From the NCBI GenBank assembly GCA_916610825.1, contig OU744453.1:4357845-4421844 (forward strand): DNA of 64,000 bases. Reading direction: 5' to 3'. A program made the position numbers and the translations under genes. This DNA is from Haliclystus octoradiatus. Lineage: Eukaryota > Cnidaria > Staurozoa > Stauromedusae > Haliclystidae. Below, piece after piece: positions 5,008 to 48,800 of the stretch. Numbering within the stretch: the first letter of the stretch is position 1; each line of letters opens with the position of its first letter. The notes under the pieces are model-generated. The model had not been told where the DNA came from. It saw only the letters and a program-made list of their open reading frames with translations, and ran no database searches.

Positions 5008-5151
5008 AGGGATTCGTATTTATTAAAAGCGATTCTATTAAATCGGATTTTACGATTAATCATCAATTATCAATTCAACTTATTACTATTTAATTCTAAC
5101 TATTCAATTATCGTTTATTCGTTTTTAATATTCTTTAGAAGAAATAGCGAG

Positions 5152-21841: not shown

Positions 21842-24800
21842 TGCAAAAAATATATATATATATATTCTGCAACTACTGAATTAATTTACATTTTAATCTG
21901 AAAACAAATTTACAAGCCTACGATAATATTTTGTTTTCCTCAGATAATATTATTTTACAGGTACAATAATTGACTGAATTGCCATCAAGGGCCTTGAAAT
22001 GTTGTTGTTGCTGCTATTTATAGGATTGATTTAAGCATGACTATTGGTCAATCAAATAAAGTGTCGGTTCTTTTACGTGGGAAACAATCATCTCGTATGG
22101 TTCAATGTTATTCATCAAATCCTAATATATTGCAGGTATATATAATAATAATATATTAGGGAAAAAATAATTATAGGAGTGCACATACGTATATGAAAAT
22201 AATCAATATTTGGTAAAACAGAGCAATATATTATAAGAGACAAAGATGAAGAAAAAGCCTTTTTTCGTAGAAGATTTTTCAGGTATTTACAATATAATAT
22301 ATAGATAGAATAATCTTCCGGCAGATGAGATAGCTGTGCTCAGAACATATTTTTTAATTACTGACGTCTTTGACTCAGCCATCATCGCTACATTACAAGA
22401 AGTTAAGATAATTAAATCTTTCTAATTGGACATGAACAGTAATTTTTACTCAAACCAAGCAAAATAATCTTATACAAGAATTAAAAATATCAAAATTATA
22501 AGAATTATAGTATAGTATAAAGATATGATTATCTTTCGAGAGATGAACTCCTCCTAGACTACGGCTGTGAATGATTCCAAACTATATTATCCGGCTAAAC
22601 TCAAGCTTAAACTAACTCGAAACGCTTTTCGTTTGGCTTAGTTCTGAGTATTACGATCCGAGAAAGTGAATTTAGAACGATTAATGTTCTGGAAAATTAT
22701 TCTAAAAATCTTGCGTTCAATTAAGGAGCCGCGCGAGAACGCAAGAGATTCTAAAAACTTGAACAAATTTATGTTAAAACCTGTCCAAGGCAGCAGTTCG
22801 AATCACCTGATAATTTAATTTTACGGTTAGCTGTATATCTATACTACAAGAACATGCTATTCCTTTTACCGTAGATCGCTCTGTATCAACAAAATATTCA
22901 TTTCTGAAACGACTAGATTTACGAAATAATCACGACTTTTTCAGTTTCGATGTCATTATAATTTGTAGCGACAAATAAAGCACACGATATATCTGCAACG
23001 GTTTCGATTTATTCTTAAATCATCTTCAGGCAAGCAAAAGAGAGAGAGAGCACAAATGAGTATTAGTATATCACGTTTTGTTTGCGAAAATATTAATGTC
23101 CAAAAAATTGCATTTTTAATTGAAATTTAATGTTGCGTTATAGTAGCATGTATATATTATCAGGGAACATTACACAGAATAATCAATCAAATATTTGCTA
23201 CGTAATTCCCGTGGACTGCATGCAACCTTTCTGGAGTGAAGCGTCTAAAAGGCCCCAAACGCAGGCCGAATGCTGGTACCATAATTTCTTCAATAATGTG
23301 TTCTCTTTGGCTCAGTCACCATCGCTCTTAAAATTGTCAGGCCGACAGGTAAAATGTATATACATGTTTCCCTATAAGCTCACTTGAATTGCTAATCAAC
23401 TACAGTTTAACCCACTTAAGCGCAAGTCAGGATTGCCAATAATTTCCATTGCATTTATCTGTATTTGCAATTATATCAATTGTTTAAGAAGGTATTGATG
23501 ACAAAATAGTTTATCATGAACGAACTATCAATTATGATTTTTTAATCATGATTATTTCTGTTTAATCGGATTGATTAATATCTTGTGTTTTAGATTTTGC
23601 CTGCTGATCAATTCATGCTGATGGGTAATTCAGTTCAAGAAGTGAAATTGATTACTAATCCTTCCATTAAAAGTAATACTAATATTTTTGTCAATGTTGT
23701 TGGTATCCTTTTCAATTCAATCCGATAATTGGATCTATCTTCAAAACTAGATAATCTTATAGTAACATGATAAGACCACCTCCATTCTCCACTATAAATC
23801 GCATATGATTATAGATCGTTAAGGAACCAAACTCCGAGGGGTTACTTCTGTAATTTTTTGAGGGGTGTGCTATTACAACTTATTTACATTACAATATTGA
23901 TATACTTCCTGTAAACATAATCGTGTCATTTATAGTTTTAGTTTAGATTCTAATATACTGTTCTGTGATCAACAACGTTTATTCTCTCGTCTCAAGTTCT
24001 AGCTTATTCACATAATACTACATGGCGCTGCGATTATTCGAACTTTGGGATTGTTATTGTTGATTTGTTATTTATACCTTCGTCTTCGTTTGGTATATTT
24101 ATTGGTTCATATTTTTCATTCATCTTACTGTTCGTGTTGTTTACATTATGCCAATGGAGACACGTCAGAATGAAAAAGCTTCCACAAGCACTGCTGGTGA
24201 TGAAGAATTCTCTGATAATTCTGATTCTCATGATCCAATAATACCTTTGGCATCTTCTATTAATCTACCTTCAGGAGATATTCCGCCATGGTTTAACGCC
24301 ATTTTACAGCAACAACAACAAGCTTTTACCGCCGCTCTGCAATCCGTCGCTAAAGCAACTTCAAAACACAGAAATAACGAATCTCACTCGGGTTCAGCCA
24401 AAAGAATGGACATACCAACATTAAAAAGTCCTTCGAAGATAACTATTGCCGATTTTCGTGATTGGGAAGAACGATTTTCAGGTTACGCTGCTGCGACACG
24501 TTTGTCAACAGACTGCAATCTCGCTGCTCGAAGAGGCATACTAAGATCTGCAATTCACGACGATTGGTCAAAGTTGTGGACAGCCAAAGTAATCTTGGTC
24601 AACGATATCGATGATACAGACGCAATAATAGACAAATTTAGTCATTATCTTCGAGATAAACGAAATCCACTGCTTGATCGAAAAGAATTTCACAACAGGG
24701 ACCAACTTCCTGATGAGACGATAGATCAATACTACGCCGTTCTACGCACGCTTGATGAAAGCTGTGGGTTTTCCCCTGAGTTAACATGCGAAACATGTCA

Positions 24801-27800
24801 CGCAGACACAGGAATATCACAAAACATGCGGGACGAAAGACTGCGGGACCGTCTAATATGTGGCCTCCGCGATGTTGACACGCAACAAAAAGTCCTGGCA
24901 GAAAAATTTTCTACGCTTACATTAAAGAAAACATTAGACATTTGTACATCTCACGAGGCAAGTAAGACAACACAAGACAAGTTAGCAACCTCTTCAACAA
25001 TTAATGTCTCAGCAATCAAAAGCAAGAAGCCTTACAAGAAATCAGAAAAATCAAATACTGGTCGTCAAGACAACAACAGCTCTAATGAACATACACCTAA
25101 ATGTTATTTTTGTGGCAAGCAAAAGCATTCAAGAGCCGAATGCCCAGCAAAAGAAGCTATATGTGGATTTTGTGACAAGTTAGGACACTATCAATCAGTT
25201 TGCAAAGCAAAAAAAAGATCATCACATCAACCAAATACTAACCATGTATATCTTAATGCATTGTCAAATACAACTGATACAATCAAGCTACTAACTACAC
25301 ATGAACATGGACCCTCATACCTTCATTGGCTACCTGACACTGGTGCTGCATGTGACGTCCTAAGTGTTCAACATTTAAAGGCATTAAACTGTGACCTTTT
25401 ATTAAAGTTGAAGCCAGCTACTGATCAACTATTTACAGCTAATTCAACACCTCTATCAACACTTGGTCGCTGTTCTCTGACAATCAAACTTAACAACAAT
25501 CAATACACTGCTGACATTCATGTGGTGGACGCTGTCAATGCACCATTACTAAGCAAAAAAGGATGCATTGCGTTGGGCCTTATTCCTGAAAACTGGCCAG
25601 ACTTATCAGCAGCTACTCCTGTCAACACTGTGTCTCTATTGGCAAGCACTGACCAAGAAGCTCATCACATCAATCTACCAACACAGCAATCTTCCAACGA
25701 TGACGCCACACAACTTATAAAGGAATTCTCTTCTGTTTTCACTGACACAGGACCACTACGGAAAATGGATGGCCCTGCAATGAAGATAGAGCTGACCGAA
25801 GACGCCACACCTACTCGCCAATACAAAGCGTATAATATACCGTTTAAGTGGCAGAAATTGGTACAAGCACAACTAGATTCGATGATCACAAAGGACATCA
25901 TAGAAAAAGTTCCTTTGAACGAATCACCACAATGGATTCACCCTATGGTTGTCGTTCCAAAGAAGAACTCTACAGAGCCAAGAATCACAGTTGATCTCAC
26001 ATCACTAAATCGGTTTGTCAAAAGACCTGGTTATCCATCACGCACACCACGAGATCTGATCGCCAACATCCCGCCTGGAATGAAATACTTCACTACCTTG
26101 GACGCCCGTCATGGCTACTGGCAAGTACCTCTGGCTACTGAATCAAGACCGCTCACTACATTCATCACACCCTGGGGCTGTTACCGCTTTAGAAGGAATG
26201 TCATGGGTCTTATCAGCGCTGGCGATGAGCACAACCGACGTGGAGATGAAGCATTGGCTGGCATTGACAACCTACAGAAAGTGGTGGAAGACGTCATCAT
26301 CTACGACAAAGACTATGACACACACATCAAACGAGTCAAAGACGTCTTAAAGAGATGCTCTGATAATGGTATCACCTTGAATAAAAAGAAATTTCATTTT
26401 GCTCAATCATCTGCTGAATGGTGTGGGTATGTTATTACTTCAACTGGTTACACGTTAAATCCTCGCCTGGTTACTGCATTGACAGAATTTCCACAACCAA
26501 CATCATTGACGCAACTACGCTCTTTCCTTGGTCTGGTACAACAGTTTGAATCATTTTCATCTGAAATTTCACAACTGGCAACACCACTACGAGCTCTACT
26601 GTCACCTTCAACATCTTTCTATTGGAATCAACTCCACCAAGATGCATTCAAAGGCCTCATCAATGAACTAACTAGTCCACGCATCCTTGCTCATTTCAAT
26701 CCACAAGCTCAACTCCGACTTGAAACAGATGCTGCACAATCTAAAGGACTTGGCTATGCTCTATGGTCCGAACAAGATGACAAAACTTGGCGCCTCCTAC
26801 AATGTGGTTCACGCTTTGTCACTGATGCAGAGTCCCGCTACTCTGCTACTGAAATTGAATTGGCCGCAGTCGTTTGGGCAACCCAGAAGTGCAAAATGTT
26901 TTTACATGGGTCATCATTTAACCTAATTGTCGACCACAAGCCACTAATATCCATCCTCAATGACAAGCGTCTGCACCAAATTCCAAGTGCAAGAATCATT
27001 CGCCTCAAAGAAAAGTTATCATCATTTTCATTCACTGCTATCTGGCGTGCTGGTACAAGTCACACCGTCGTCGATTGCTTCTCACGACATCCAGTTGATC
27101 AACCAAGTCCAGACGATGTCAACATTGATACAGATGCTGATTCAAGCTTCCAAGTAAATCACATCCAAACTCGTCTTCAATCAACTGATGCTACCAACTT
27201 TCCACCAGACGCAACTCTCAACAAAGTCAAATCTGCAGGTGAAAATGACGCAGTACATCTCAAGCTAGCTGACCTGATCATTAATGGCTTCCCACAACAG
27301 AAGGAAAAACTGGACATCAGCATTCACCCCTATTGGTCACTACGTCACGATCTGTCACTCTTGGAATCATCAATCATCCTCTACCAAGATCGCATTCTTA
27401 TCCCAAAATCTCTTCGATCGACTATGCTGAATGAACTCCACACATCTCATCTTGGTCTAACTCGAACTCTTGCACGAGCTCGACAATGTATTTTTTGGCC
27501 AAATATGACCAACGAAGTCACAAATCGAATTCGGTCATGCGAAGAATGTGCCCAAAGACTGTCATCCAACTCACATGAGCCACTTATTCAAGACACACCA
27601 CCAACTCGTCCTGGTGAAGCGATTGCAACAGACATTTTCTCACACCATGGCCACGAATTCCTTGTCATCACCGATAAGTACTCTGGTTGGCCTCACGTTG
27701 TACACTGTGGCAAGAGCACCGATACAGACACCGTCGTCGATATTCTATCCAGCTGGTTCTGTAGCATGGGTGTCCCTATTCGCTTAACGTCTGATGGTGG

Positions 27801-30800
27801 ACCGCAGTTTTCAAGTCATGCATTTTCAGCATTCTGCAAAGATTGGGGCATAATTCACGACCCGTCGTCACCATACCATCATCAAGCCAACGGACATGCA
27901 GAAGCTGCTGTCAAAGCTATGGAAAATATTGTCGCCAAAGTAACAACAAATGGACACCTCAACACAGAAGCCTTCTACAAAGCTCTATTGGAATACCGTA
28001 ATACACCAAGAAGTGATGGTATCAGTCCAGCCCAGCGTTTATTTGGCAAACCTCTTCGGTCACGAATCCCAATTCATCCATCGCAATTCACTGATGACAT
28101 CAAGCAACTAATTATTATTGCAGACAAGAAAGCAAGCACGCTAAAAGAAAAAGCAAAACAACAACATGACCTTCATGCTCGCCGCCTTGATCCATTCATT
28201 CCTGGTGATATTGTCCGCATCCAAAATCAGAATACCAAACATTGGGATCGCATTGGAGAAATTGTCTCTATTGATCCTCGAGGACGCAGCTATCGCCTAA
28301 AAACCGAATCTGGTCGACTCTACTGGCGCAACCGCCGTCAACTCCGCCGGTACTATGGTCCATCAACATCAACTACAGCTGCTGCTTCAACCACCCCAGA
28401 GGAGGAAGAACCATCAACAAATACATCTAGTGCATCATTACATTCACCACCTAGACGCAGCACTAGAAAGAAAAACAAAACTAATAAACTAAATTTATAA
28501 TCAATATTCATTACATGTATATTTCTATAATCTCCCAGAAAGGGCATGTGCTATTACAACTTATTTACATTACAATATTGATATACTTCCTGTAAACATA
28601 ATCGTGTCATTTATAGTTTTAGTTTAGATTCTAATATACTGTTCTGTGATCAACAACGTTTATTCTCTCGTCTCAAGTTCTAGCTTATTCACATAATACT
28701 ACAAGGGGGGTGTTCTATTTTCAAAAAATTTCAAAGAGAGAGGAAAGCTGTGAAAATCTCACAGAAAATGAGAATGAAGACCCTAACTTTCATGTTTTTA
28801 CGAGCACAACAGAGGAAATTGACACCGTAAAATTTCGCAAGAATCTAGAAAAGGAACCATTTAAAAATGGCATGTCTCCGTACAGCCGATGTATAGAAGT
28901 CCCCCTCGGGACTAAACTGAGTTTTGGAGATTTAATAGTAAGATTCAACGTAAGCATTTAATGCTTGCTTTTTTATTTGGAAAACCTAATAAATATATCT
29001 GGTAAAATTAAAAGATGTATGTATTTTAAATACAGCTACGTAAATTCATAAGATTCACCCGAAATTTTGGTTTAATATTCGACTAAAAAACTGAAGCTAT
29101 TTAATTAACTTCGGCGATGGCCTAAACAAACGTTTTTTGGTCATCCCTAGTTAAATTTTTACAATCAATTAATAGGTCGGTTTACATAAATATTTTTTTA
29201 TTTCCATATTCCTCATTTAAATTAACACACAAACGTTATCAAATTTTTAGGCTATACGTAAGTGAACATCTATTTTCTAATAAATTTTCCTGTGCTTGCC
29301 AGTAATTGTTAATATTGTTATTTTTTACAAATATATTAAATCAAAATCAAAAATTTCAACATATTATCAATCATACTCAAAGGAATTTATAATGTCTATA
29401 TATATATAACACTTCCAAAGCTAAAATTGATATGAATACAATCAAACCTGTTATAACGGTCACCTCTATACAGCATCCACCTGTGTATAGTGGTCACTCT
29501 TACAATGTCTAAAATAGTATTTTCTATTGAATCAAGCCTGTATATAAAGGCCACCTGTCTATAGTGGTCAATTTATCTACCTCTCGTAGCTGGCTGTTAT
29601 ATACAGGTTTCACTGTACTAGGTTTAAAATGTAAAAATTGAATGCGTTAGAAATTAACGCAATTCGTCATTCATTATCAAATGCAATCTATATTACAGTT
29701 TATAATTACGTGTCATTTATCATTTGTCCTTAACTGGTATTTCCCCCAAGATACTGAATTTCGTCAGTTAGTTAAATCGTGGCTTGTTTGCATAACATGT
29801 AAATTACCAATAATTTCAAAGACATTTGAAGTTTCATTACAAGTTGGTGGAGGAAAAGGCTCTAGCAAGGTGAATAGTTTAAATTACAAATTATGAGCTT
29901 TACGTGGTGTTCAATAGAATCCAATGATTGTGAAAGACCTTTTTAGATGAGGGTGTCCTATAATGCTCTGGGCCAACGACGGCTACTTTTGCGCAAAAAA
30001 TCTGTTTTTTTCTGACGTATGTTTTTCGTGTTCTGAAGCAGTCTTTTCAAGAGCGGCTAAAGGGACCGACTTTCACAAGACTTTTCTAGAAAAACTCAGA
30101 CTGACCTTAAACAGAAACCATGTAATGACCGCAACATCGAAAGAGTTCGATACATTTCGAACGAAATGGTTCGAAAAGGATAACGAAGACGTTCAATAAC
30201 AAAAATCCGTGAAAAGACTTTGAAAATGTTTGATGGCCATCAAACACAATGCGACAAATAAAATACACGATGCAACACGTCAGACAAAATCGAAAGAGTA
30301 GCTAAACGACAAGGACTTTCGAAGGATTTAAAAGTCGCGCAAATGTTGCCGTAGTTTGCCCAGGCCTTTAAGGTCACTCCCAAATACTTTTTCAAAACTA
30401 TTGGCTACTTACAGCAGGCTAGTACTGTTTAAGGGACACATACTCAAAAATGGAGGGGTCTGGACCCCCGGCTCCTGATGCCAAATGCTCCTAGTAGATT
30501 TCTCTATACAGTATTTTATTTACAGATTATGAGTCATGAGTGTTTAACACATTTCAAACCACATGTGTACAGGAAAAAACATAAATCAAACTCCGACTCC
30601 GGTAGGGAGTATCCATATTTTTGCAGCAGTCGGAATGGAGTTAATTGCTTGTCAGAAATTAGTCGGAGCCAGAGTCTAGTATGAAATCTTTGTAATAAAC
30701 ATTGGATGGTTGAAATTTGTTAGGGACATTCCAGCATATAGATTGTATTTGGCTATGTATTTTTAATTATGTTAATTTGATGAGAAAACGGGTTGATAGA

Positions 30801-33800
30801 GTTAATTCATGTTTGGAATTTTACATGAGTCTGTCTGAAATATTTTAGAGTCCAGTTTTTACATTTTTGGAACTAGGCTCTGAGTCAAATTCTTAAAGAC
30901 TTCTAATGCTTCTATTGGGTCTGAAATTTTGACTTCTTACAGCTCTGTTTCCCACGTTCGTGTTTCGAAGACTTCTTATCTTATTATTTTCTTTTTTGTG
31001 TAGAAAATTGGATTTACTAATCCATATCCTGCTCAAAAGTCCTTTCATCTTACATCCAATCGACAAGATTTGCTACAATTCAAAGAAGACACACTTCTGG
31101 TATGAATTATAACATTAATACTATGATATGCATGACTTATTCCTTTATAATTTTATATCAGAAATGTAGAAAAAAAAGGAGAAAAACAAATAACATCGAT
31201 ATCGGCTAATTTGATTCAAGGAGCAGCATTGACCGGCGGTCGCTACGAGCTTAACTTGAATTAAGCTTAGCGTAGATTCAACGGTAAACAGAATATTCAA
31301 CAGGCTGCATGGAGTCATGCGCAGTAGCACCCTGTCCCGTCTGATATTTTGGCCACATCTGAATTAAATCTGAATCTCGCACGATTGACTGTACTTCGGT
31401 TTATTTGTATTTCAAACTCAACTTGACTTTGAGATTTCTGATGGCGGCCAGAAAATGGCGGTCTTGTCCAAATGTAATGAGATTAAAGTTTCAAAATAAC
31501 AGCTTTTGACAATAGTCATCGTCATATAATATAATTTGTGTGGATACAAAGTTCTTATCCTGGTCATCGTAGAATTCCAGTACAGTTGATGTAATATTTA
31601 TCAATTATTTCCACGTCTACGTTGTTACTTATCAACGAACAGTCTAACAGAGACAGAGTACACGGTGTATTTTTAAATAGCTAATATTGAATATTGGACA
31701 GGGTAAGGGAAGATATTTGAAAAATTAACATGAAGTATGGTGTAATCTAACTCAGCTTTGAATAGTAAGATATGATAATATCAATATAACATCAAAACAT
31801 GAATAGATTGTACACATAGAATCCGGCATAGAATAGGCTAGTCTATATTTGCTAAACTCATTGCTCGTAGACTAGCCTACCTTCAAATCATAGTCCATAA
31901 CCTACATTAATCAGAAAAGTAAGGGAAGGAGCTTACTCAATCAAGTAAGGGCTAAGGTACTAACTGATGATAGATAGGCTTAGTGATCCACTGTCTTTGA
32001 TCTGATATAGTATTTATTAAATTACAAAAAAGCTAACATTAATGAGCGACTATTATGGAAGAGCTTTTGGTCTCCACTACACACAAGCACACACCACAAC
32101 CTTGTATACAGTATCTCAATTCAGTTGAAAACTAATAATTATTGTTTTTAAAAACAACTTATCTGAAATAGTAAACAAACTTATCTATTCGTATTGTAGA
32201 CTTTGCAACACTGAGCCAGAGTAAATGTTTGTAATATTGTTTAAAATCATAGAAATGTAGGCTACTTGCAGAACAAAATCCTCTGATAAAGTGTTCCACC
32301 GTGGATATAGCACAGCTAATAAATGGATTCTTAACCACTTGCAGAAACAGGATAATTGTGGCATTTGCTTTGTCATAATCCTTTACACCTTGCCTATAAT
32401 AATTATTAATTAATATGTATCAACATGTGTGTATATGCATCAATATGAGATACTTACACAACAAATAACTAATGGACAATCTACAAGATTATAGGCTAAG
32501 CTAATTTTTGATTTATAAAGGGTAGGCCCCTAGGCTACAAAGTTGAAAGAGACGGCATTCTGAGGTGATCAGTCAAGATAATTAAAATTTAAGCAACATT
32601 GGTAATCTTCATCAGGATGTCTCGTGATATTAAACTACCTCCTAGAAAATTATGTTAGACATACGGGAGGCTGAGAGCTCGACTGTACGCGGACATATGT
32701 TTTGTAGATTAAGCCTAATAATCGGCAAAGAGAAATGTTAACATTTCAATAGCAAATATGCCCCTAACATGCCTTGGCAGAAATCATGAAACAATAGAGG
32801 GATGGTTTATATTTCGTGTAGGGCCTACTTCTGTGTGTGTACTCTTTTACTAAAAATATCATACATTTATGAAAATTGATGTTCTTAAGGCAAATATCAA
32901 AACAATGAGTTGAAGTTTAGAAATAGATACAGTTGAAATCTGTGTATAGCAGCCAGCTATGAGAGATAGATAAATTGATCAATGTAGACTGGTAGCTCAA
33001 TAGTAGAGTGCATGTAGTCCCTGTGGGAGACCAGGGTTTGATTCCTCATCGCCTCACACAATGTATTTTATCTATACGTACCAGTAACTTTCATGTAATA
33101 GAGCTAATAGTAATTTCAATTAGTTGATTATAAATTTGACTGCTGTTCAGACATTCATTCCCATGCAAACGAGCTTGAAGCTTATGTGGTTAAATTTAAA
33201 TTGTAAACTGCGAAGTGAAACAAAATTATCCCATCACACCATTAGATGCAGGTGGCCTTTATATGCAGGGTTGATTAGATAGAAAATACTATTTCAGGCA
33301 TACCAAGAGTGACCACTGTAGACGGGTGGCTGCTGTATAGAGGTGACCACTATGAATTCTGGCAAAGGGGCATGTGGCCATTGTTTTCAAATTAATTTTA
33401 ATAAGACTAGGCGTTTGGCGTGGTCCTGGAATACTGTAGCAGAAAAAGCTACATGGGTGCAACCCTGGGCAGCACAATGCTGTACCAAAACCTTTGAAGC
33501 CATTGTTACTCCAGTCTTGTAGCTAATCTGTCTCCCCTACTACCTTCTTTTAAGTCACTTCAGAATCAATCAAATGCGTTTCTAATTTTGTACTGATTTT
33601 GTTGGAAACTCTCCTCTTACACCCCCTCTGAGTTTTGAATCTCTCTCTTGTCACGTGGGTATTTTCAGTGTGCATTGTTCAAGGTAGTCAAATTAGCCCT
33701 ATTCACAAATATATTCATAAACAGGATAACAATAATTATGGAGCAATTTCTCTTTGCCTGTATTGTCGAAATTAATTGAATTCATTTAACAACTATCAAT

Positions 33801-36800
33801 TTACCAATCATGAATTAGAAAACGTTCCTGCACAACAGTAGTAAGTTTCACTTGATGTTTACATCTAGAAACAAGAAAGATTTTGTTTGATGCCTTTGTT
33901 TTCCATCATTTCGAATACTGTGCTGACGTCTGGGAGAACCAACAGTATGCAAAAACACCTTGATTGCCTACATAATCTACTGAACAAGGATACATGGCAT
34001 TGGTGTCCTTTATATTATCGATTATTAGAAATAAAGTATACGCTAAGTAAAGCTCGTGCTCAAGAATGTTTAAAGAACGTGCCTATTTAGCCTGCGCTAG
34101 TGCAAGTTTCCCCGTCTGTTTTGATCCTCTCACAAGGCCCATGGCTGCCACCTAGTCTGCTGCTCTTTGGTTAATCCGTAAAAGTATACGCAAAATGCAG
34201 GCTGTGATAACAGTTCTTGAACTTTAAATGGACCAACAAATATTCATGAATTGTTCATGAAAAACAGGTCATTTAACCAGCTATAGCTACGTTCAGCCCA
34301 AACTATCAAGGCTGTAAAAATTGTCAGTAAGAATTGAAAGCAGCACAAAAATAAGTGTATAGTATGAAGATCAGTATGTATAGTACTGCACTTTGAAAAG
34401 TTGAAACGGCTCAACACAACAGTTATTCTAATGTTTCTTGAAAGGCCTATTCAAATCGAAAAACTACATTTAAAATAACTTCTCAGAAAAGTGACTATTG
34501 CCCAGAATTTGTAAAACAGCCTTGTATTTAGGGTTCATGAATAGTTATGGACTCAACAAATTTTTCGTAGGGGAATATGCCTACTTATTTGCGTAGCACC
34601 AACCAAAGATAAATCTATGTGAACATCATATGATAATAATTAATGAAATATTTTGTAATAATAAAATGAAATAAAATTTAAAAGAAACTTTCTTAAAAGC
34701 ATCAGGACCAAATTTCTGAGTAATGAAGAATCATACCCTTTGGCCTCTATAATATAAACTTTGTAATAGAATCTACATTAATCATACTATCACAGAGTCA
34801 TATCTGACAGGTATAATTTAAGTGAACAACCTTCAACCTTTTTGGCTGTGTTTAAAATCAAACCCACAACGACAGTAAAACTAAAGTGACAATATTGTCA
34901 ATTACGAATAAGAAAATATAATAATTAAAGAATTTGACCATTCCAAAAGTACATATATATGTTAGTTATGAATAACAAATTTAACCTCTGAAAGTTTAGA
35001 GCCTCATTTATTTTGCACCTGCGTATTAAAGATGTGTGAATCCAATCAGATTGGATTGCATCCAGGTAGTATTCCAGATGATTTTGGATTTTGAAACTTG
35101 TAAGAGTATTTGTACTTTGTAGCGATTAATCAATGTGTTCTAGTTTCCTCTCAACTGACTGCTTCTTGTACATATAGTGACATTCATGTTCCACTCTCTA
35201 GTATTCCACTCTCTAGTACATCAATTACACGTTTGATGTGAAATGAATTATACAATTTCTTCAAGGAAATGATCAAGATTATTGATTCATTGTACGTATT
35301 GTATCATCATTTTGATGTGCTGTATGTGACTGTCTCATGTCAGCACCCTATATAATTCCTGTAATCTATCTATGTTGTCTATGTGTAGATTGAATAATAA
35401 ATGAGATACAGTTTAGCCTTCATTGTGCTCACTATCCATTTGGTCTCGAATATCAATTAGTTGTTGTTATAGCAAAGCCAGCTATACGACATACAGTGAT
35501 AGTACGTCACATTTATTCATGCTGGTATTTATTATTGCTGTGTGGTAGTTTTGTATTTTATCACAGTAGTAGTAACTTAGTGTCTAACGCAGAATATCCA
35601 GCATCAAGTTAAAAGACATCTGATTAAAGCGCCTGAGACTGTATCAAGCAATCATCCATAAATCTATACATTAAAAACTTGGATTAGTTTACATTAATTA
35701 CAAATTATTTGCTTCGAATCGGATTATATTTATAATTAGCATATTGCTTCAAATCGGATTGGAATCGGATCATTACAACATTCATACCCGTAATCAATTT
35801 TGTGTAAATTCGATCTGATGCACACTTCAATGCGTATGGTCTTGCTTCAAGATGGCATGAACATATATACTGGCTCTTGCTATCATTGAACTATACTACA
35901 GTTACGCCTACTTGTAGTTTTTAAAATTGAAATAAATTGATTAAAAGCCTATCGTTCATTCATGCATTTTTGAATATTTACATTGTTTTATGGAATTCAG
36001 ATAATTGATATTTTCTGAATTGATTAATACTGCACGCTGTTAGTTTTGAAGCTTCAATATAATTGTTTATGGTATGACGACTTTCAGCGCAATACACTGC
36101 AACTGACTTGTTTCAGTCAAAACTCTGTGGCTTGGTAGAGATTTTATCGATAAGAAGTACTATATTAACATATCATATCATAACTAACATTTTGAAATAT
36201 ATTGAATGTTTGAGAATTATAAAGATTTAAAAAATCAATTTCTTATTCAATGAATTGATTAAAATTAATGCTGATAAATACATGTATATATGATAATCAT
36301 ATCATAGACAATGGATCATTAAGCCTCACTATCATCAATTATTACCGCAGTTGATTGAGTGAGCTCCTTCCCTTACTTTCCTGATTAATGTAGGTTATAG
36401 ACTATGATTTGAAGGTCTATGAGCAATGACTTCAGCAAATATAGACTAGCCTATTCTATGCCGGATTCTATGTTTACAATCTATTCATGTTTTGATGTTA
36501 TATTGATATTATCATATCTTACTATTCAAAGCTGAGTTAGATTACACCATACTTCATGTTAATTTTTCAAATATCTTCCCTTACCCTGTCCAATATTCAA
36601 TATTAGCTATTTAAAAATACACCGTGTACTCTGTCTCTGTTAGACTGTTCGTTGATAAGTAACAACGTAGACGTGCAAATAATTGATAAATGTTACATCA
36701 ACTGTACTGGAATTCTACGATGACCAGGATAAGAACTTTGTATCCACACAAATTATATTATATGACGATGACTATTGTCAAAAGCTGTTATTTTGAAACT

Positions 36801-39800
36801 TTAATCTCATTACATTCGGACAAGACCGCCCTTTTCTGGCCGCCGTTGAGTTTGAAATACAAATCAAACCGAAGTACAGTCAATCGTGCGAGATTCAGAT
36901 TTAATTCAGATGTGGCCAAAATATCAGACGGGACAGGATGCTACTGCGCATGACTCCATGCAGCCTGTTGAATATTCTGTTTACCAGATTCAACGATCAA
37001 TGTCAGTCAATGGCTTCGGCACTGCTTCGAGTTTCAAGTTTCAGCATCACCATGGTTTCAGGCACAGAAACCATAGAAATGACAAACACGCACATGTCTC
37101 TAAGCGCGTAGAGCCTACCGGTCAATTTTGTCCCTTTAACTTCACAATTGAGCTAATGACTTTAAGTAGACCTTTTCTGAGTACCTTTGTTGTGCTTCTG
37201 CCAGAGATTAAACCCAAGATCCTGCAGATCGAGGTCCAACACCATATATTTAATATTGAAAATATCCCGCAAAATATTTATCAAATGACTGAGCCGTTGT
37301 AAAAATAGCTTGTAACTACGGTGGCCCAGAGGTGCAAAACACACACACACAATCTCGCAACACACACACAATCTCACAACACGCACATACAATCTCACAA
37401 CACGCACACTAAACCCACAACACGCACAGACAGCCCACACGCACAGAAAGCCCACAACAAACAAGCAATCTCATAACGCGCACAGAAAACACACAACAGG
37501 CACAGAAAACCCACAACACGCACCCAATCTCACAACACGCACATGAGGTTACGCAAATACCTAGCAGATACCCAAATTCCCTTACGTCATAGCCTCATTC
37601 CATCAGCGAGGCGCTTCATAGGTAGTACAAATATAAAATAAATCTGCATTTATATAGCTTCAAATTACATGATCTTGACTTTTTACCGCAAACAGTAGAA
37701 TTTGGGCTTTGCGGTCAGAATAAAAAAATTAAATTCTAATTAATCACAGTTCTATTCTACAAATTGATGCACAGGGTTTGTTTTTATTACTATGCCAGTT
37801 GATATATCCTTAGGTTATCTCTCTTACTTTATTATGCATCATATCATTGCTAATTAAATTATTAGACTGTTCTTATGGAAATGGACGAAGAAGGATTTAT
37901 AAGGTATTATTTTCACAAAGGCTACGAGTACAATGTAATATTGCGTTATTTGAAAAAATTCCATGACATTAAGATATCACATCGAACATTGCTTACTCGA
38001 TTAAGAGAGTACGGTTTACGTCGCCGTGAAAGGGATTTCAATGTGAATCATGTTCGGCACTGCATCCAAGAGGAACTTGATGGACCAGGCTGCTTACTTG
38101 GCTACAGATCGATGTGGAAAAAACTGCAATCCAAATATGATCTGAATATTCCTAGGTCTATAGTTCAAACCCTATTACGTGAAATGGACCCTGAAGGCAG
38201 CGGGCTACGTCAAAGACATCGGCTCAGAAGACGGAAGTATGTGAGTGAAGGACCCAATTATTGCTGGCATGCAGATGGATACGACAAGCTTAAGCCGTTT
38301 GGCTTCCCAATCCATGGTTGCATTGACGGATTTAGCCGACGAATTATATGGCTCAAGGTCACCAGATCAAATAATGATCCTTACATTATAAATACTTTTT
38401 TCCTTGAGAGCATTCGCAACGCTGGAGGGTGCCCAAATCTGCTACGCACTGACCGGGGAACCGAAAACGGCATCATGGCGACAAGCCAATGCTATTTGAG
38501 GCGACGTGGCGTGAATCTTAATGCATCCTTAAAATCGCATCGTTATGGTTCTTCCCATACGAATCAGCGTATTGAAGGTTGGTGGTCTTTTTTGAAGAAA
38601 TCATGGTCATGTTGGTGGATCAACTTTTTCAAAGATATGATAGCAGAAGGACATCTCGATACAAGTGATGAATATCAAACAGAGTGCGTATGGTTCTCAT
38701 TTAATAAGATTCTTCAGAAGGAGTTGAATGAAATCAAGGATAGCTGGAACAACCATTATATAAGAAAATCAAGACATCAAACTATGTATGGTGTTCCAGA
38801 CCAGCTCTATTTCTTGCCTGAGAATGTTAACCGAAGAGATTGCAAACATGATTTTGACCCAGAAGATATAAACGATGCCGAAAACGAAACAAAAAATGGT
38901 CTCCCAACTAATCCTGATCTGGACATGTATCAAGATTATTTCAGTGAAACAGTATCTATCTTGGGGGAAGCAGAAGGAATCACATGGAAAGGAGGATTGC
39001 ACATTTTTAATAGACTTATGTCTGTTCCCCAATGCTAGGCAAAATGTTTTTCAGTACTTCTTATCACTGTATGGACCTGTATGTAGATGCGCATCTCAGT
39101 TCTACTCCCAAATAACAAGCGTATCTTGTTAAATATCAATATTACTTGTACAAATAGATTCAGTATTAACAATTATACTTATGATTTATTCTGTCAGCTT
39201 TCTTAAAAAAATGTAATAAATGTTATAGCGAAATTGCAAAAGTTTGATTACGTAGGTAAAATGATTGTATGTGGACACACCTGGCGGAGTCGGAGTTCGA
39301 CTCCTGTTGACCTGTTTCTGTTAAATATGTGCGAAACCGACCAGCTTGATAGTATGGTATATCATGAAAGATTTCAAGTGAAAGAAAAATCTGGCCGTGC
39401 GTGTAACTGTATCAAGCAAGCGTCGATAGATTTATAAGTCACTGTGTTAAATTATAGAAATTTTAGTTTCGGATCACACCGGATAATGTTTCTGATTATT
39501 GCTTCGGATCGGGTCGGATTGGGATCACTATCGCATTCGTACCCGTTTTCGATTTTTTGTAAATCCGATCCGACGCACACCTTTGGTTCTTGTACACTGT
39601 CACACTGCAACCTGCCCTTTCCAAATGTGCTTTCATCAGGCCTGCTTGCTAATTTTCAAACTCGCTGTGATGCGATGCCACTCCTCATGGACTCACCTCA
39701 ATTTGTATGTATATTAATAGTACAGTCATTATAAAAAATGCAACAGAAGCATTTTTCATCAATTCTAGGGTCAAATTTTATGCTTAACAACATATCCAAA

Positions 39801-42800
39801 ATGTTCCGAAATCGGAGTAGGCAAAATGCCTTAATTTTGCAATTTGATTTATGGCATTCCCAGTAGAAACATGAAAGCGAGGCTGTCCTTTTTTAGTGTA
39901 ATCATGTGATTTAATTTGAGAGAAAAATATCAGGAATAGTAGCCTTGCATCATTTAGCACATATAATGTGCTTAAAATTTCTTTACTGTCACCATGTATC
40001 AAATTACCAAAACGAGGCTATATATGAAGATTAAACAAATCGACATAGAAAAACTAGAAAAACATATACAAAGTAAGTGAAAAATGTTATTCATTATATT
40101 TTAACATTCCACTAGCAGTATAGATCATGTAAATACTTTATTTATCTTATTTAGAAAATTTAATTAGGTAATATACATTGTTCACAATGAACAATTTTAG
40201 GCAAATGCATGGGGATATCATAGTCGCAATTATTTTTGACAGAAATTGACCATTACGATTTGATGATAGGCCTGAAGAAAAACAGCAGAAAATGATATCC
40301 AATAGAAATGTTAAATTAAATTAAACTAACGAACTAATACCTTTTACTTCTTGACAGGAAATCAATTAACTTTGTATATAGACTACAGTTATCCAGTCGT
40401 TTATGTTACTAATTTAGCCATGGAATGAAAATTGAACATGGAACTTCACCCAAAGGTTATGCCCAAAATGTTGACTATATCCTATACACATATACAATCA
40501 AACCTGCTATATAACAGCCATCTCTATACAGCGACCACCTGTCTAAAGTGGTCACTCTTGCAATGTCTTGAAATAGTATTTTCTATTAAATCAAAGATTG
40601 ATGAGCTTGGCTGTAGTTTTGGTGATTTCCTCTTTTTCAGTCCTTGGTTTCTCTGAGCAGACAAAGGAAGCTCGTATGGAGAAAATGGTCCATAGTCAAT
40701 GAACTCGTATGAATAGTCCATGAACAGTTCATGAACATTGTTATTGAATGCTCCCGACTTTTCATTTATTATAAATTATACAATTTATAAATTAATTCAG
40801 CAGCTCATGAACTGCTTATAAATTGTTCATGAAACTTTGCCATTTAACATTTATGAACTATTTTTCCACAGAAGATTTTTATACAACAGATTTGATACAT
40901 CCCCTGCAAAATGTTCAGGAGTTCAAAAGCTTAGAACAATTCATGAACTATTCAAAAACAGCTCATGAACCTTCACGGACAGTTCATAAACAATCCATGA
41001 AAACTTTGGACCATTTAACGTTCATGAACTGTTCATGGACTGTTCATTAACTCCTGAACTGTTTTTCGCAGGGATATTATGAAGAGCTGCCAAACACATA
41101 TTGTGAACCCTACAGTTTTACTCACTTGTATTCGAAGTTTCGAAAATATGTTAACCATTATTGATTAAAATGAATGGAGAGCTAATGGTCGGGGAAATTT
41201 GCAAATTTCAAAAGTGGCACAAATTATTTGCTTTATACAAGTTTCCTTTATCTGCTCAGACGAACCAAAAACTAGAAAAAGAGTAACTCACTAAAACTGC
41301 AGCCAAGCTCATCAATCTTCGATTCAATAGAAAATACTATTTCAGAACATTGCAAGAGTGACCACTTCAGACAGGTGGTCGCTGTATTGGGACGGCTGTT
41401 ATAACAGGTCCGATTGTATATGTATATAGTATATAGTTAACATTTTGGGCATAACCTTTAGATGAAGTTCCTGTGTTCAATTTTCATTCCATGGTTAAAT
41501 TAGTAACATAAACGAGTGGGTAACTGCAGTCTATACACGAAGTTGCATTGATTTCCTGTCGATGATTAATGAAGGTATTAGTTCTTTAGTTTAATTTAAT
41601 TTGACGTTTCTATTGCATATCTTATTCTGCTGTTTTTCTGCAGGCCTATCATCAAATCGTAATAGTCAATTTCTGTCAAAAATAATGGCGACCATGAACA
41701 TTCCTAGGCATTTGCCTGAGATTGTTCGTTGTGAACAATGTATATTACCTGGTTGTATTTTCTAAATAAGATAAATTAAGTATTTACATGATCTATACTG
41801 CTAGTAGAATGTTAAAATATAATGAATAACATTTTTCACTTACTGTATATATCTTTTTCTAGTTTTCCTATGTCGATTTGTTTAATCTTCATACATAGCC
41901 TCGTTTTTATAATTTGATACATAGTGACAGTAAAGAAATTTTAAGCACATTTTATGAGCTAAATGATGCAGGGCTATAATGTCTGATGGTATTCCTTCAA
42001 ATTAAATCACATGATTGCACTAAAAACTGGACAGCCTCGCTTTTATGTTTCTACTGGAATTGCCATAAATCAAATTGCGAAATTAAGGCATTTTGCCTAC
42101 TCCGATTTCGGAACATTTTGGATATGTTGTTGAGCATAAAATTTGACCCTGAAAAATGCTTCTGTTGCAATTTGTGTGAGGTTAAGGCTTATATTGGCTT
42201 AAAATGACTGTACTATAAAGTAATAGTTTCGAATTTCAGAGAATGACTCAGAACAAATAACAAACAGCATGTTTCTAAAATTTAACTTGAACTATAAGAA
42301 TGTAGCACATAATTTTCGTATGCCTTGAAATAACAAGTGAATAAAATAAAAAAATAATAATAGGTTCTATAGAGATGTAACTAATTAAACGATTGATTCT
42401 ATAGCCCAATAAGCAGAATATTAAAAATGATAGTGCTTCAATAAAATGTGATTATCGACTTGCACGCAATACAGAAATGACTTATGATTTCGCATTACAT
42501 TTTGTCGATCGATCCTATATTTTCCCGAATCCTGGTGAATTCAACATGCAGAAGGTAAAGTCACGCTCGAATGTAATATAATTGATTAGATTGTCATCCA
42601 CTGGTATATTTAAGATATTTGCGCAGGTGTTGGTGCTCATCTTTCTTTTCACACTCAAACCATGTTGAAATTGCACTGTGGGTCGAGGAGTAAATCCAAT
42701 TGCAGGAATGTCCTGCGCCCCAGTGACAAACTGTAGCACATCTTTCAAAGTTATAATAACCTCTTCTTCATTTAACTTTGACTTTACTCTTCCTTTTTCG

Positions 42801-45800
42801 ACGTTCTCGAGATACTGATTGAAATTAAACATCAATTTTACTTCCTGCGCATATCTGTTGCTTCCTTTTAAGTTATATTGGGGCTGAAATAGTTCATCCA
42901 GACTTTCAGCTGTTAAATCTCCCGATATTTGGAATAGTTTTCGGCAAATTTCAGGGTTCTCACGAATGAAGTCTAGAACATTACACGTTTTCAGTCCTTC
43001 AACGAATTGATTAATTTCAGTAATGGATGACAAGAGAATATAATGTAGACACATGCATCGGAAGAATTCATCTTTGTCAGTCAACGTCACAATTGGTTTC
43101 GAATATCCTGCTTCAAGTCTAAAATCACACTCGAAAGAGGCTATTTTTTTGAATTCTTTTTCATTTGTAATGATGTCCAGGCCTTCTAGAAACTCTCTGA
43201 CCTCTCTATTTGGGATTTCACTTATGCACGGTTCGATCTTTTCTATTTCTCCGTACAGAAGATACTCTACAATAGAATCCGAAAAGCATTTCGGGCCAGG
43301 AGATCCTTGTAAAATACCCATAGCTGTCAATTGCCCAAATGCTAAGAATTGCTTACTCTGTAAGTGAGAAATGTTATGTCTGAACACACCATTTTCTGAC
43401 AAGAGGTTTCTTCTAGCATCAGCTTGAACAAGGCAAAAAAACTCCCTTGAAGGTCCCCCCTGGTCTACAGCAGGCTCGCCAACAAACTGGACCTTAATTG
43501 GATGGTTCATTTCATCAAGACGACTTAATTTCAAGAGGGAGTCTTCCCAGACAGCGTTTCGTCTTACCTTGAAACGCTGAAATCCTTCATTAGTGTTCAA
43601 TTGTTTTCCCCTCAAATACAATAACTTTTCTTGTAAGACACTATCCGAAGAAAATGTTGATTGATCGTCATCCTCAGGTTGAAAATCATGGTCACTGTCA
43701 AATTGTATATGGTCATCAATATTATCACTCAGTAGAGCGGCGTATACATTCTGGTTAGAATGGTTGTCAGCATTAATGAGAATGTTGCTTGCCTCTTCTA
43801 GTGTTCCAGTACAAGTAACAGCATCCAATATCTCCTGCTCATTACTATTTGGAAATATTTCAGTAAGAAGTTTGACTGAATTTTCACTGGTAATGGGAGT
43901 GGTGCAAGTTGTAAGTGGTAATGGGAGTGGCTCAGTTGCGGCAAAGACATCACTGTTGGTGCTAGTACTAGCAATGGGACTCCGTTGATCATAACAGTCT
44001 GGTCGTACTAGCGTTTGTTGAGGCGAGCTGTCCGTAGTAACAATTGGACTTGCATTTGAAGTAGATGCAAACATTTCGAAATCAGCAAGCATCTCCTTAT
44101 ACTGCTTCAGGACCGCTCTTTCTATCAGAAAAAATGTTATTCTGTTATAATTTTTCCCGACGTCATCTTTATAAATGTTTAACTGAAATATCTTCGTTGG
44201 TTGTCCGGGCAAAGTTAATATCTCCGAGCCATCAGGATAGAGAAGGGTATATGGCACATTAGGCAAAAATAACTGGTCATGAGCAACATGCTTCTTGATC
44301 CCCATAGTCAAAATTTCAATCTTTTTGGCTGTCGGTGGGACACGCACGACCATAGTTTTGCCTTTTATTGATTTTAAATCATTTCCACTAATTTTCATCC
44401 GTCCAATATTTATGACCACCTCATTTGTTATAATTTTCTTTTTTTTTGAAGCTATTGTAATAGTGGATTGTCTATCCAAAGATACGCTTCTCCTGTAATC
44501 CTCAAAACTCGGCAACTTTAATGACGAAGGCAAAACATTTATATTACTCTCAGTAGCTCTCTCAGTTTCTCTCCGAACTGAACTGCCACAATTATGACAG
44601 AATTTACATCCATCTACTCTTAAATCTGAATTGCAATTTAAACACTTCATCTTTGACACTTTGATAATAGCTGCACCAGAAAAGAAATTATTAATAAGGT
44701 AGAGAAAAATATAGAATATTACAATATCAAGATTAAATCAGAAGCAAAACCGTGCAGTACATCACTTTTGGAGTTAACTATACACTAAAGATTTTCAAGT
44801 TTTAGGTTGGTCCAAGGTCAAATTACTAGCATTTGCGGTTACAATTGACGATCAAGTAATTTGAAGCCAACAAAAGGATATCTATCAATCACGATATTCT
44901 TTAGACGGTATTTTTGTGTGCGTATTGTGGGCTTTCTGTGCGCGTTGTGAGATCGCGTGCGTGTTGTGAGACCATGTCCCTGTTGTGTGTTTTCTGTGCG
45001 CGTTGTGGGCTTTCTGTGCGTGTTGTGGGGTAAACAGAAAATTCAACAGGCTGCATGGAGTCATGCGCAGTAGCATCCTGTCCCGTCTGATATTTTGGCC
45101 ACATCTGAATTAAATCTGAATCTCGCACGATTGACTGTACTGCGGTTTGATTTGTATTTCAAACTCAACTTGACTTTGAGATTTCTGATGGCTGCCAGAA
45201 AAATAGCGGTCTTGTCCGAAAGTAATGAGATTAAAGTTTCAAAATAACAGCTTTTGACAATAGTCATCGTCATATAATATAATTTGTGTGGATACAAAGT
45301 TCTTATCCTGGTCATCGTAGAATTCCAGTACAGTTGATGTAATATTTATCAATTATTTCCACGTCTACGTTGTTACTTATCAACGAACAGTCTAACAGAG
45401 ACAGAGTACACGGTGTATTTTTAAATAGCTAATATTGAATATTGGACAGGGTAAGGGAAGATATTTGAAAAATTAACATAAAGCATGGTGTAATCTAATT
45501 CAGCTTTGAATAGTAAGATATGATAATATCAATATAACATCAAAACATGAATAGATTGTACGCATAGAATAGGCTAGTCTATATTTTCTAAAGTCATTGA
45601 TCATAGACTAGCCTACCTTCAAATCATAGTCTATAACCTACATTAATCAGGAAAGTAAGGAAAGGAGCTCACTCAATCAGCTGCGGTAATAATTGATGAT
45701 AGTGAGGCTTAGTGATCCACTGTCTATGATATGATTATCATATATACATGTATTTATCAGCTTTAATTTTAATCAATTCATTGAATAAGAAATTGATTTT

Positions 45801-48800
45801 TTAAATCTTAATAATTCTCAAACACTCAATATATGTCAAAATGTTAGTTATGATATGATATGTTAATATAGTACTTCTCATCGATAAAATCTCTACCAAG
45901 CCACAGAGTTTTGAGTGAAACAAGTCAGTTGCAGTGTATTGCGCTGAAAGTCGTCATACCATAAACAATTATATTGAAGCTTCAAAACTAACAGCGTGCA
46001 GTATTAATCAATTCAGAAAATATCAATTATCTGAATTCCATAAAACAATGTAAATATTTAAAAATGCATGAATGAACGATAGGCTTTTAATCAATTTATT
46101 TCAATTTTAAAAACTACAAGTAGGCGTAACTGTAGTACTAGTATAGTTCAATGATAGCAAGAGCCAGTATATATGTTCATGTCATCTTGAAGCAAGACCA
46201 TACGCATTGAAGTGTGCATCAGATCGAATTTACACAAAATTGATTACGGGTATGAATGTTGTAATGATCCGATTCCAATCCGATTTGAAGAAATATGCCA
46301 ATTATAAATATAATCCGATTCGAAGCAAATAATTTGTAATTAATGTAAACTAATCCAAGTTTTTAATGTATAAATTTATGGGTGATTGCTTGATACAGTC
46401 TCACGCGCTTTAATCAGATATCTTTTAACTTGATGCTGGATATTCTGCGTTAGACACTTAGTTACTACTACTGTGATAAAATACAAAACTACCACACAGC
46501 AATAATAAATACCAGCATGAATAAATGTGACGTACTATCACTGTATGTCGTATAGCTGGCTTTGCTATAACAACAACTAATTGATATTCGAGACCCAATG
46601 GATAGTGAGCACAATGAAGGCTAAACTGTATCTAATTTATTATTCAATCTACACATAGACAACATAGATAGATTACAGGAATTATATAGGGTGCTGACAT
46701 GAGACAGTCACATACAGCACATCAAAATGATAATACAATACGTACAATGAATCAATAATCTTGATCATTTCCTTGAAGAAATTGTATAATTCATTTCACA
46801 TCAAACGTGTAATTGATGTACTAGAGAGTGGAATACTAGAGAGTGGAACATGAATGTCGCTATATGTACAAGAAGCGGTCAGTTGAGAGGAAACTAGAAC
46901 ACATTGATTAATCGCTACAAAGTACAAATACTCTTCCAAGTTTCAAAATCCAAAATCATCTGGAATCAATAAATACAAATTTTACCCAATCCAAAGACCT
47001 AAAATATCACTACCTGGATGCGATCCAATCTGATTGGATTTGCACATCTTTAATACGCAGGTGAAAAATAAATGAGGCTCAAAACTTTCAGAGGTTAAAT
47101 TTGTTATTCACAACTAACATATATATGTACTTTTGGAATGGTCAAATTCTTTAATTATTATATTTTCTTATTCGTAATTGACAATATTGTCACTTTAGTT
47201 TAACTTTCGTTGTGGGTTTGATTTTAAACACAGCCAAAAAGGTTGAAGGTTGTTCACTTAAATTATACCTGTCAGATATGACTCTGTGATAGTATGATTA
47301 ATGTAGGTTCTATTACAAAGTTTATATTATAGAGCGTATGATTTCTTCATTACTCAGAAATTTGGTCCTGGTGCTTTTAAGAACGTTTCTTTTAAATTTT
47401 ATTTCATTTTATTATTACAAAATATTTCATTAATTATTATCATATGATTTTCACATAGATATATCTTTGGTTGGTGCTACGCAAATAAGTAGGCCTATTC
47501 CCCTACGAAAAATTTGTTGAGTTCATGAACTATTCATGAACCTTAAATACAAGCCTGTTTTACACATTCTGGGCAGTAGTCACTTTTCTGAGAAGTTATT
47601 TTAAATGTAGTTTTTCAATTTGAATAGGCCTTTCAAGAAACATTAGAATAACTGTTGCGTTGAGTCGTTTCAACTTTTCAAAGTGCAGTACTATACATAC
47701 TGATCTTCATACTATACACTTATTTTTGTGCTGCTTTCAATTCTTCTTACTGACAATTTTTACAGCCTTGATAGTTTGGGCTGAACGTAGCTATATCTGG
47801 TTAAATGGCCTGTTTTTCATGAACAATTCATGAATATTTGTTGGTCCATTTAAAGTTCAAGAACTGTTATCACAGCCTGCATTTTGCGTATACTTTTACG
47901 GATTAACCAAAGACCAGCAGACTAGGTGGCAGCCATGGGCCTTGTGAGAGGATCAAAACAGACGGGAAAACTTGCACTAGCGCAAGTTAAATAGGCACGT
48001 TCTTTAAACATTCTTGAGCACGAGCTTTACTTAGCGTATACTTTAATTCTAATCATCGATAATATAAATGACACCAATGCCATGTATCCTTGTTCAGTAG
48101 ATTATGTAGGCAATCAAGGTGTTTTTGCATACTGTTGGTTCTCCCAGACGTCAGCACAGTTTCGAAATGATGGAAAACAAAGGCATCAAACAAAATCTTT
48201 CTTGTTTCTAGATGTAAACATCAAGTGAAACTTACTACTGTTGTGCAGGAACGTTTTCTAATTCATGATTGGTAAATTGATAGTTGTTATATGAGATCAA
48301 TTAATTTCGACAATACAGGCAAAGAGAAATTGCTCCATAATTATTGTTATCCTGTTTATGAATATATTTGTGAATAGGGCTAATTTGACTACCTTGAACA
48401 ACACACACTGAAAATACCCACGTGACAAGAGAGAGATTCAATACTCAGAGGGGGTGTAAGAGGAGAGTTTCAGACAAAATCGGTACAAAATTAGAAATGC
48501 ATTTGATTGATTCTGAAATGACTTAAAAGAAGGTAGCAGTGGAGACAGATTATCTACAAGACTCGAGTAACAATGGCTTCAAAGGTTTTGGTACAGCATT
48601 GTGCTGCCCAGGGTTGCACCCATGTAGCTTTTTCTGCTACAGTATTCCAGGACCACGCCAAACGCCTAGTCTTATTAAAATTAATTTGAAAACAATGGCC
48701 ACATATGCTCCTTTGCCAGAATTCATAGTGGTCACCTCTATGCAGCAGCCAACCGTCTACAGTGGTCACTCTTGGTATGCCTGAAATAGTATTTTCTATC

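What the first reader, a model, noticed from the sequence alone, without database searches (positions are those of the whole stretch)
37338..45028. A transposon that carries its own HECT ubiquitin ligase
The sequence shows an intact DDE transposase and an intact HECT E3 ligase, both intronless and convergent, between inverted copies of one minisatellite. I infer that they form one mobile unit. A mobile E3 ligase could degrade a host silencing factor or control transposase levels. I recall that intronless HECT genes are multi-copy in many animals, but I do not know a described element with this layout and ends.
Basis: partly seen in the sequence, partly recalled or inferred. Interest (0 to 1): 0.78.

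Follow-up and report, generated by a model that had tools for sequence, protein, structure and literature searches.

The report
Jellyfish transposon carrying a ubiquitin ligase
A stalked jellyfish carries a DNA transposon with two genes, one for the enzyme that moves it and one for a ubiquitin-tagging enzyme (an E3 ligase), and both genes sit inside one set of transposon ends at several places in the genome, so the ligase is mobile cargo rather than a mere neighbour.

Summary
An intronless DDE transposase (37875-39038 +) and an intronless HECT ligase (42515-44650 -) converge between inverted minisatellites, and they are one mobile element. The host assembly (metrics match Haliclystus octoradiatus) holds four copies with both genes at the same spacing; three have both ends (TACGG..CCGTA) and perfect 6-bp target duplications. 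The minisatellites are subterminal; the true TIR lies outside them. The window copy has lost its right TIR where another repeat lies. Ends and duplications fit the IS3EU superfamily. A second, diverged family in the same genome (transposase ~45%, HECT ~24% identical) is a 19-kb element, 6.6 kb of it a nested retrotransposon, with the ligase gene in both long arms; it has left many shortened derivatives. A third relic pairs a distant transposase with HECT. The ligase keeps its catalytic cysteine; dN/dS is about 0.3 against a relic. It looks like a selected accessory gene. Its target is unknown; I favour countering host silencing, with control of the transposition complex close behind. No open-access paper found joins IS3EU and HECT; Repbase could not be checked.

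The parts
37317..45028 (+). window copy of the IS3EU-like HECT transposon (family 1), right end lost
   Evidence: the parts fetched from three complete copies align at 98.1-99.5% nucleotide identity (37312-40522 and 41017-45029); left TIR at 37317
37317..37356 (+). left terminal inverted repeat TACGGTGGCCCAGAGGTGCAAAA...; right partner missing in this copy
   Evidence: exact TIR of 40 bp measured in the C8 copy; boundary compared in five copies
37338..37543 (+). left subterminal tandem array (~20-bp unit, CACAACACGCAC)
37875..39038 (+). DDE transposase, 387 aa, no intron; D134, D193, E234 (spacings 58 and 40)
   Evidence: PF24764 E 2e-30; residues, in columns invariant in the 14 aligned sequences, window included
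39763..42153 (.). imperfect palindrome between the two genes (arms 39763-40686 and 41226-42153, 89%)
   Evidence: the arms also match in loci of the other copies
42515..44650 (-). HECT E3 ligase, 711 aa, no intron: N-terminal zinc ribbon, conserved ~100-aa domain, CUE-like region, HECT domain with catalytic Cys676
   Evidence: in this member the zinc ribbon is weak (E 0.05) and CUE was not called; CUE was called in 7 of 11 aligned members at E up to 0.1
44913..45028 (-). right subterminal tandem array, inverted relative to the left one, cut short
45029..50647 (-). not part of the element: repeat (terminus GGTAAACAG) lying where the right TIR should be
31283..36985 (+). not part of the element: complete copy of the same repeat, with 9-bp duplication AGATTCAAC at 31274-31282 and 36986-36994

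Best explanation
It is a two-gene DNA transposon of the IS3EU kind, about 7.8 kb when complete. Shown: TIRs (TACGG..CCGTA), inverted subterminal arrays, 6-bp target duplications, a DDE transposase, and a convergent HECT E3 ligase inside the same ends in all four full-length copies found; and a second IS3EU-like family in the same genome with a homologous ligase. Inferred: the transposase binds the terminal arrays and TIRs and moves the whole unit; the ligase is a standing accessory gene that raises the element's success by ubiquitinating a protein that limits it. I think the likeliest target is a host silencing or repair factor (about 0.4), next the element's own transposase or post-transposition complex (about 0.3). 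The stated confidence is for the identity of the element and for the ligase being a selected accessory gene, not for the target.
Against: No single family-1 copy now has both ends and both frames open: the window copy lacks the right TIR; C2:22.76 Mb has a stop in HECT; C8:15.67 Mb has a stop in the transposase; C2:35.59 Mb has a stop in the transposase and a frame break in HECT. Four HECT relics (C8:8.93, C7:10.79, C1:37.37, C11:11.68 Mb) have no transposase hit nearby. For 30 of 62 rva_4 loci no HECT was found. HECT-bearing transposases do not form one group in the tree. dN/dS among copies rests on few changes. Pfam HECT does not reach the family-2 relative P0018. No comparison with Repbase IS3EU transposases was possible. 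Nothing here shows ligase activity or a target.
Confidence: 0.85

Rival explanations
1. The ligase acts on the element itself: it tags the transposase, limiting its level or marking the stable post-integration complex for removal by a host unfoldase, as ClpX does for phage Mu transposase (recalled).
For: HECT members have a CUE-like, ubiquitin-binding region and an N-terminal zinc ribbon; some relatives of the transposase carry a zinc ribbon of the same Pfam family PF13240, which would suit a shared docking site.
Against: The zinc ribbon is a generic domain; the window and C11 transposases gave no zinc-ribbon match. No interaction data.
Confidence: 0.3
2. HECT is a captured passenger of no use to the element.
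For: Two of four copies have a broken HECT frame, and for 30 of 62 rva_4 loci no HECT was found.
Against: dN/dS about 0.3 to a relic; catalytic cysteine kept in relatives at 42-53% identity; homologous or similar ligases beside at least two, probably three, transposase lineages in one genome. The transposase frame is broken in two of four copies too.
Confidence: 0.1
3. Two unrelated genes or elements that merely lie side by side between stray minisatellites.
For: The window is rich in nested repeats, and this copy's right end is disrupted.
Against: Same layout in four places, three with both TIRs and duplications that enclose both genes.
Confidence: 0.01
4. The ~5.6-kb inverted arms make the real unit: one ~19-kb composite moved by the arms.
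For: The arms are about 95% identical and inverted around the gene pair.
Against: The left arm has its own complete ends and 9-bp duplication. The ~1-kb flanks outside the TIRs of the other three complete copies do not match the arms. Of six 3.5-4-kb pieces fetched farther out, five have no window match; the sixth (L037) matches a dispersed 90-144-bp repeat, two places of which lie in the arms.
Confidence: 0.02

Closest known systems
IS3EU superfamily (Repbase; PMC10045372, abstract and passages read)
   Same: TA..TA termini, usually 6-bp duplications, DDE transposase without an HHCC motif
   Different: HECT and ubiquitin have 0 occurrences in the main text of that paper
Fungal TET+ IS3EU elements (PMC12730594, passages read)
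   Same: TAYGG..CCRTA termini, 6-bp duplications, accessory genes, a second gene in opposite orientation to the transposase
   Different: accessory genes are an alpha-kinase and a TET/JBP dioxygenase, not a ubiquitin ligase (HECT 0 occurrences); fungal hosts
GingerRoot (as described in PMC10045372)
   Same: 6-bp duplications, mostly TA..TA ends; not separated from IS3EU there
   Different: characterised from a clubmoss; no accessory ligase in the passages read
KolobokP (PMC9587614, title and start of abstract in a search listing only)
   Same: animal DNA transposon with a second enzyme gene
   Different: other transposase superfamily; a homing endonuclease, not a ligase
Cellular HECT E3 ligases (NEDD4, E6AP, SMURF, UBR5)
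   Same: HECT fold and catalytic cysteine
   Different: 13-19% identity in the structural alignments; another N-terminal half; here without introns and mobile in family 1

Membership tests
IS3EU | TA..TA termini (TAYGG..CCRTA in fungal members) | tested here: met
   TACGG..CCGTA in family 1 and family 2; definition from passages of PMC10045372 and PMC12730594
IS3EU | 6-bp target site duplications | tested here: met
   6 of 6 elements with both ends examined
IS3EU | no HHCC motif before the catalytic core | tested here: met
   read in the translation: no CxxC pair before D134
IS3EU | transposase groups with known IS3EU transposases | not tested
   no Repbase sequences at hand; only the PF24764 rva_4 / PF00665 rve class is shown
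HECT E3 ligase | HECT domain above the curated cut-off | tested here: met
   34.3 bits against 23.9; fold match
HECT E3 ligase | catalytic cysteine in the C lobe | tested here: met
   NTCANIL, Cys676 from the ATG; aligned with E6AP TCFNVL
HECT E3 ligase | ubiquitin transfer activity | not testable with these tools
   needs an assay
HECT E3 ligase (family-2 gene) | HECT domain above the curated cut-off | tested here: inconclusive
   the C11 gene itself was not scanned; its relative P0018 gave no Pfam hit but matches the HECT-protein profile A1, E 5e-49
Polinton/Maverick | 15-20 kb with DNA polymerase B and capsid genes (recalled) | tested here: not met
   only two frames of 150 aa or more in the element

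The most novel reading that the evidence does not exclude
A branch of IS3EU transposons in cnidarians has kept a ubiquitin ligase as a standard counter-defence or self-control gene since before its transposase lineages split, and in one family doubled the dose by placing the ligase gene in both terminal arms. That would be a transposon that uses the host ubiquitin system through its own E3.
Probability: 0.4. Interest if true: 0.85.

Novelty: new variant of a known kind. Interest (0 to 1): 0.63.

Why it matters
Transposons are usually silenced from outside; few are known to carry enzymes that act on host regulation (fungal TET/JBP elements are one proposed case, PMC12730594). An element with its own E3 ligase gives a direct handle on whether transposons use protein degradation to escape silencing or to control their own transposase. 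It may also help to explain multi-copy HECT genes in some animal sequence sets: clusters of its relatives here hold up to 43 member sequences. The predictions can be tested with existing public assemblies and RNA-seq.

Tried and rejected
Arms as part of the element: rejected, since the left arm has its own 9-bp duplication. Viral collection: transposase and HECT alignments confirmed no relative in viral contigs; the genome-contig scan did not complete. Transposase fold: the model was poor (mean pLDDT 63, under 50 around much of the catalytic core), and its Foldseek matches (best E 0.65) are not used. The conserved ~100-aa N-terminal domain of the ligase (residues 80-180, pLDDT blocks 81-92) was not folded or searched alone, so its fold is left open. 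Tree of 23 transposases: HECT-bearing rows fall in three places, but several rows have long branches and support is uneven. No ends were found for the third pair at C7; the flanks of the inverted repeats at the HECT-less C5:18.21-Mb locus gave no duplication that I could see. Absence of HECT at rva_4 loci is weakly tested: the genome scan with Pfam HECT did not report even the four family-1 HECT genes or the C11 gene; only L046, L048 and L049 were read over 8-10 kb, with no HECT-profile match below E 1. Literature: IS3EU+HECT 0 papers; HECT domain+DNA transposon+ubiquitin ligase+terminal inverted repeats 0; HECT+transposase+target site duplication 0. Four looser searches gave 9, 1, 129 and 20 papers, of which 9, 1, 25 and 15 were listed; I saw titles and abstract starts only, opened none of them for this, and noted nothing that joins a transposon with a HECT gene. 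Only open-access papers were searched. That Repbase IS3EU entries already note a HECT gene cannot be excluded.
Full report
What is in the window. Between 37317 and 45028 lie two open frames of 150 aa or more and no others of that length. The first, 37875-39038 on the plus strand, encodes a 387-aa DDE transposase of the PF24764 (rva_4) integrase class, with D134, D193 and E234 in columns invariant across 14 aligned sequences, the window's included. The second, 42515-44650 on the minus strand, encodes a 711-aa HECT E3 ligase. Its catalytic cysteine aligns with that of E6AP and its predicted model, of modest confidence overall (pLDDT 65, pTM 0.38), matches solved HECT domains. Before the HECT domain the family has a zinc ribbon, a conserved domain of about 100 aa and a CUE-like region. 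At E up to 0.1 Pfam calls CUE in 7 of 11 aligned members and zinc ribbon in 7 of 11, and the family profile matches the SMARCAD1 CUE domain (E 4e-05). For the window protein itself the zinc ribbon scores only E 0.05 and CUE was not called. The genes converge across an imperfect palindrome (39763-42153).

Where it lives. The window lies in a genome of 261,861,806 bases in 33 contigs. This matches the Haliclystus octoradiatus assembly: 262 Mb, 33 scaffolds, nine chromosomes, N50 29 Mb, longest 40 Mb (PMC9975415, abstract and passages). The mitochondrial order, cox1 opposite to cox2 and the genes after it (genes other than cox1 named by eye), fits a medusozoan (recalled). The name is thus an inference from metrics, not read from the record.

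It is one mobile element. A protein search of the host genome gave four full-length, near-identical transposases (98-100%), and a HECT search gave near-identical HECT genes beside each of the four, convergent and at the same spacing. Comparing the copies showed the true ends, TACGGTGGCCCAGAGGTGCAAAA..., outside the minisatellites. The exact TIR is 40 bp in the C8 copy. A genome scan for the 22-base terminus with up to 3 mismatches gave 28 hits against 0 for the reversed control. Complete copies: C2:22759676-22767461 (duplication ATTTAG), C8:15672169-15679968 (GTTAAT), C2:35586957-35594740 (TTTACC), and an internally deleted copy C2:32198326-32199784 of 1459 bp (GAATTT). So the minisatellites are inverted subterminal arrays, which I infer to be transposase-binding arrays.

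State of the copies. The window copy has both frames open but its right TIR is gone: at 45029 another repeat begins. C2:22.76 Mb has an open transposase and a stop in HECT; C8:15.67 Mb a stop in the transposase and an open HECT; C2:35.59 Mb a stop in the transposase and a frame break in HECT. None of the four is whole in every respect. Identities of 99.0-99.7% to the window in the two genes indicate recent spread.

The arms. The left one is complete, with GGTAAACAG..CTGTTTACC ends and a 9-bp duplication AGATTCAAC, so it is a separate insertion. The ~1-kb flanks outside the TIRs of the three complete copies do not match the arms: five have no window match and one matches a dispersed ~350-bp repeat elsewhere in the window. 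Of six pieces fetched farther out, five have no window match; L037 matches a dispersed 90-144-bp repeat, two places of which lie in the arms.

A second family. At C11:3813906-3833055 lies a 19,150-bp element with termini TACGGTGGCCCACAACTGCC and duplication AAATAG. It holds an open 392-aa transposase, 44-45% identical to the window's. On either side, in inverted arms about 98% identical over most of their length and 93% in two parts, lies a HECT-like gene split over several frames, presumably exons, 22-24% identical to the window's in its HECT part. A nested LTR retrotransposon of 6.6 kb with identical 583-bp LTRs interrupts the right arm within the ligase gene. The terminus has 84 hits in the genome, control 0; 17 of these lie in one tandem array on C11. 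From the hits I paired 27 sets of opposed ends by eye, median 5.5 kb. One such derivative, C7:14872406-14877675, has duplication GGTAAG. In 9 of 9 held loci of this type (L011-L018, L020) the ligase profile gave weak matches, best E 6e-06 to 2.4e-05, so I read them as shrunken descendants that once held the ligase. Pfam HECT does not reach the family-2 relative P0018; kinship rests on the profile of family-1 relatives (E 5e-49; 94% of the query covered) and on tblastn.

A third pair. At C7:12772631-12775836 a distant transposase relic converges with a HECT frame (PF00632 E 7e-12) of other N-terminal make-up. No ends were found.

How general. Of 62 distinct rva_4 transposase loci (hits merged within 4 kb), 5 are family 1 (4 with HECT, 1 internally deleted), 23 lie inside family-2 end pairs, 3 more are at or next to family-2 ends (one of them two elements merged), 1 is the C7 pair, and for 30 no HECT was found. 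That last figure is soft. The Pfam HECT scan of the genome did not report the four family-1 HECT genes or the C11 gene, so its silence means little; only three of the 30 (L046, L048, L049) were read over 8-10 kb, with no HECT-profile match below E 1. Four HECT relics have no transposase hit nearby. A 23-row tree puts HECT-bearing transposases in three places, the C7 relic beside a transposase without HECT. Either the ligase was gained early and lost often, or it moved between lineages; the tree cannot decide.

Selection. By a simple Nei-Gojobori count, HECT against the C8:8.93-Mb relic gives dN 0.086, dS 0.291, ratio 0.30 over 416 codons; among the four copies the six HECT ratios are 0.11-0.53 and the six transposase ratios 0.17-0.89, on few changes. 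The ten relatives aligned are 42-53% identical to the window protein, with the cysteine kept; clusters of relatives hold up to 43 members. Among the 120 transposase relatives listed (of 2890), those with species names are from Dendronephthya, Xenia and Oculina. Linkage of the two genes in those species could not be checked here.

Mechanism. Shown: ends, duplications, gene content, recurrence, conservation of catalytic residues. Inferred: movement by the element's own transposase; ligase activity; benefit to the element. Fungal IS3EU elements carry TET/JBP and alpha-kinase genes, and that paper proposes escape from silencing for the TET/JBP genes (PMC12730594, passages). By analogy I favour a host silencing or repair factor as target (about 0.4), then the transposase or its end complex (0.3), a role not listed here (0.2) and no role (0.1).

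Novelty. Termini, duplications and the lack of HHCC place it with IS3EU; no comparison with Repbase proteins was possible. No paper found joins IS3EU with HECT, within the open-access library only. I call it a new variant of a known kind.

Noticed in passing
31283-36985 and 45029-50647: Two inverted ~5.6-kb copies of an element without frames of 150 aa, with ~0.7-kb inverted ends (GGTAAACAG..CTGTTTACC); the left has a 9-bp duplication. Duplication length and ends suggest a Mutator-like non-autonomous element (recalled).
   Followed up: partly
912-5370 and 23866-28703: Two LTR retrotransposons with long open polyprotein frames and identical direct repeats at their ends (220 and 157 bp), so probably recent insertions.
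   Followed up: no
18459-21713: Inverted repeats 98% alike around a long palindrome (19564-20865, 94% to its own reverse complement); a foldback-like element.
   Followed up: no
39763-42153: Imperfect palindrome between the two convergent genes, its arms also matched in the other copies; could give hairpin RNA, or be a trace of an inverted duplication like that of family 2.
   Followed up: partly
G000:C11:8165740-8166355: Tandem array, about 37-bp spacing, of the family-2 terminal sequence (17 hits): a small satellite apparently made from a transposon end.
   Followed up: no
G000:C5:12357055 (L046) and G000:C7:8384739: Two open 520-aa rva_4 transposase frames; no HECT seen in the 8 kb read around the first; the second was not read.
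   Followed up: partly
P0073, P0082, P0090, P0093, P0105: Some relatives of the transposase carry a zinc ribbon (PF13240) of the kind seen at the start of the ligase; the window and C11 transposases do not.
   Followed up: no
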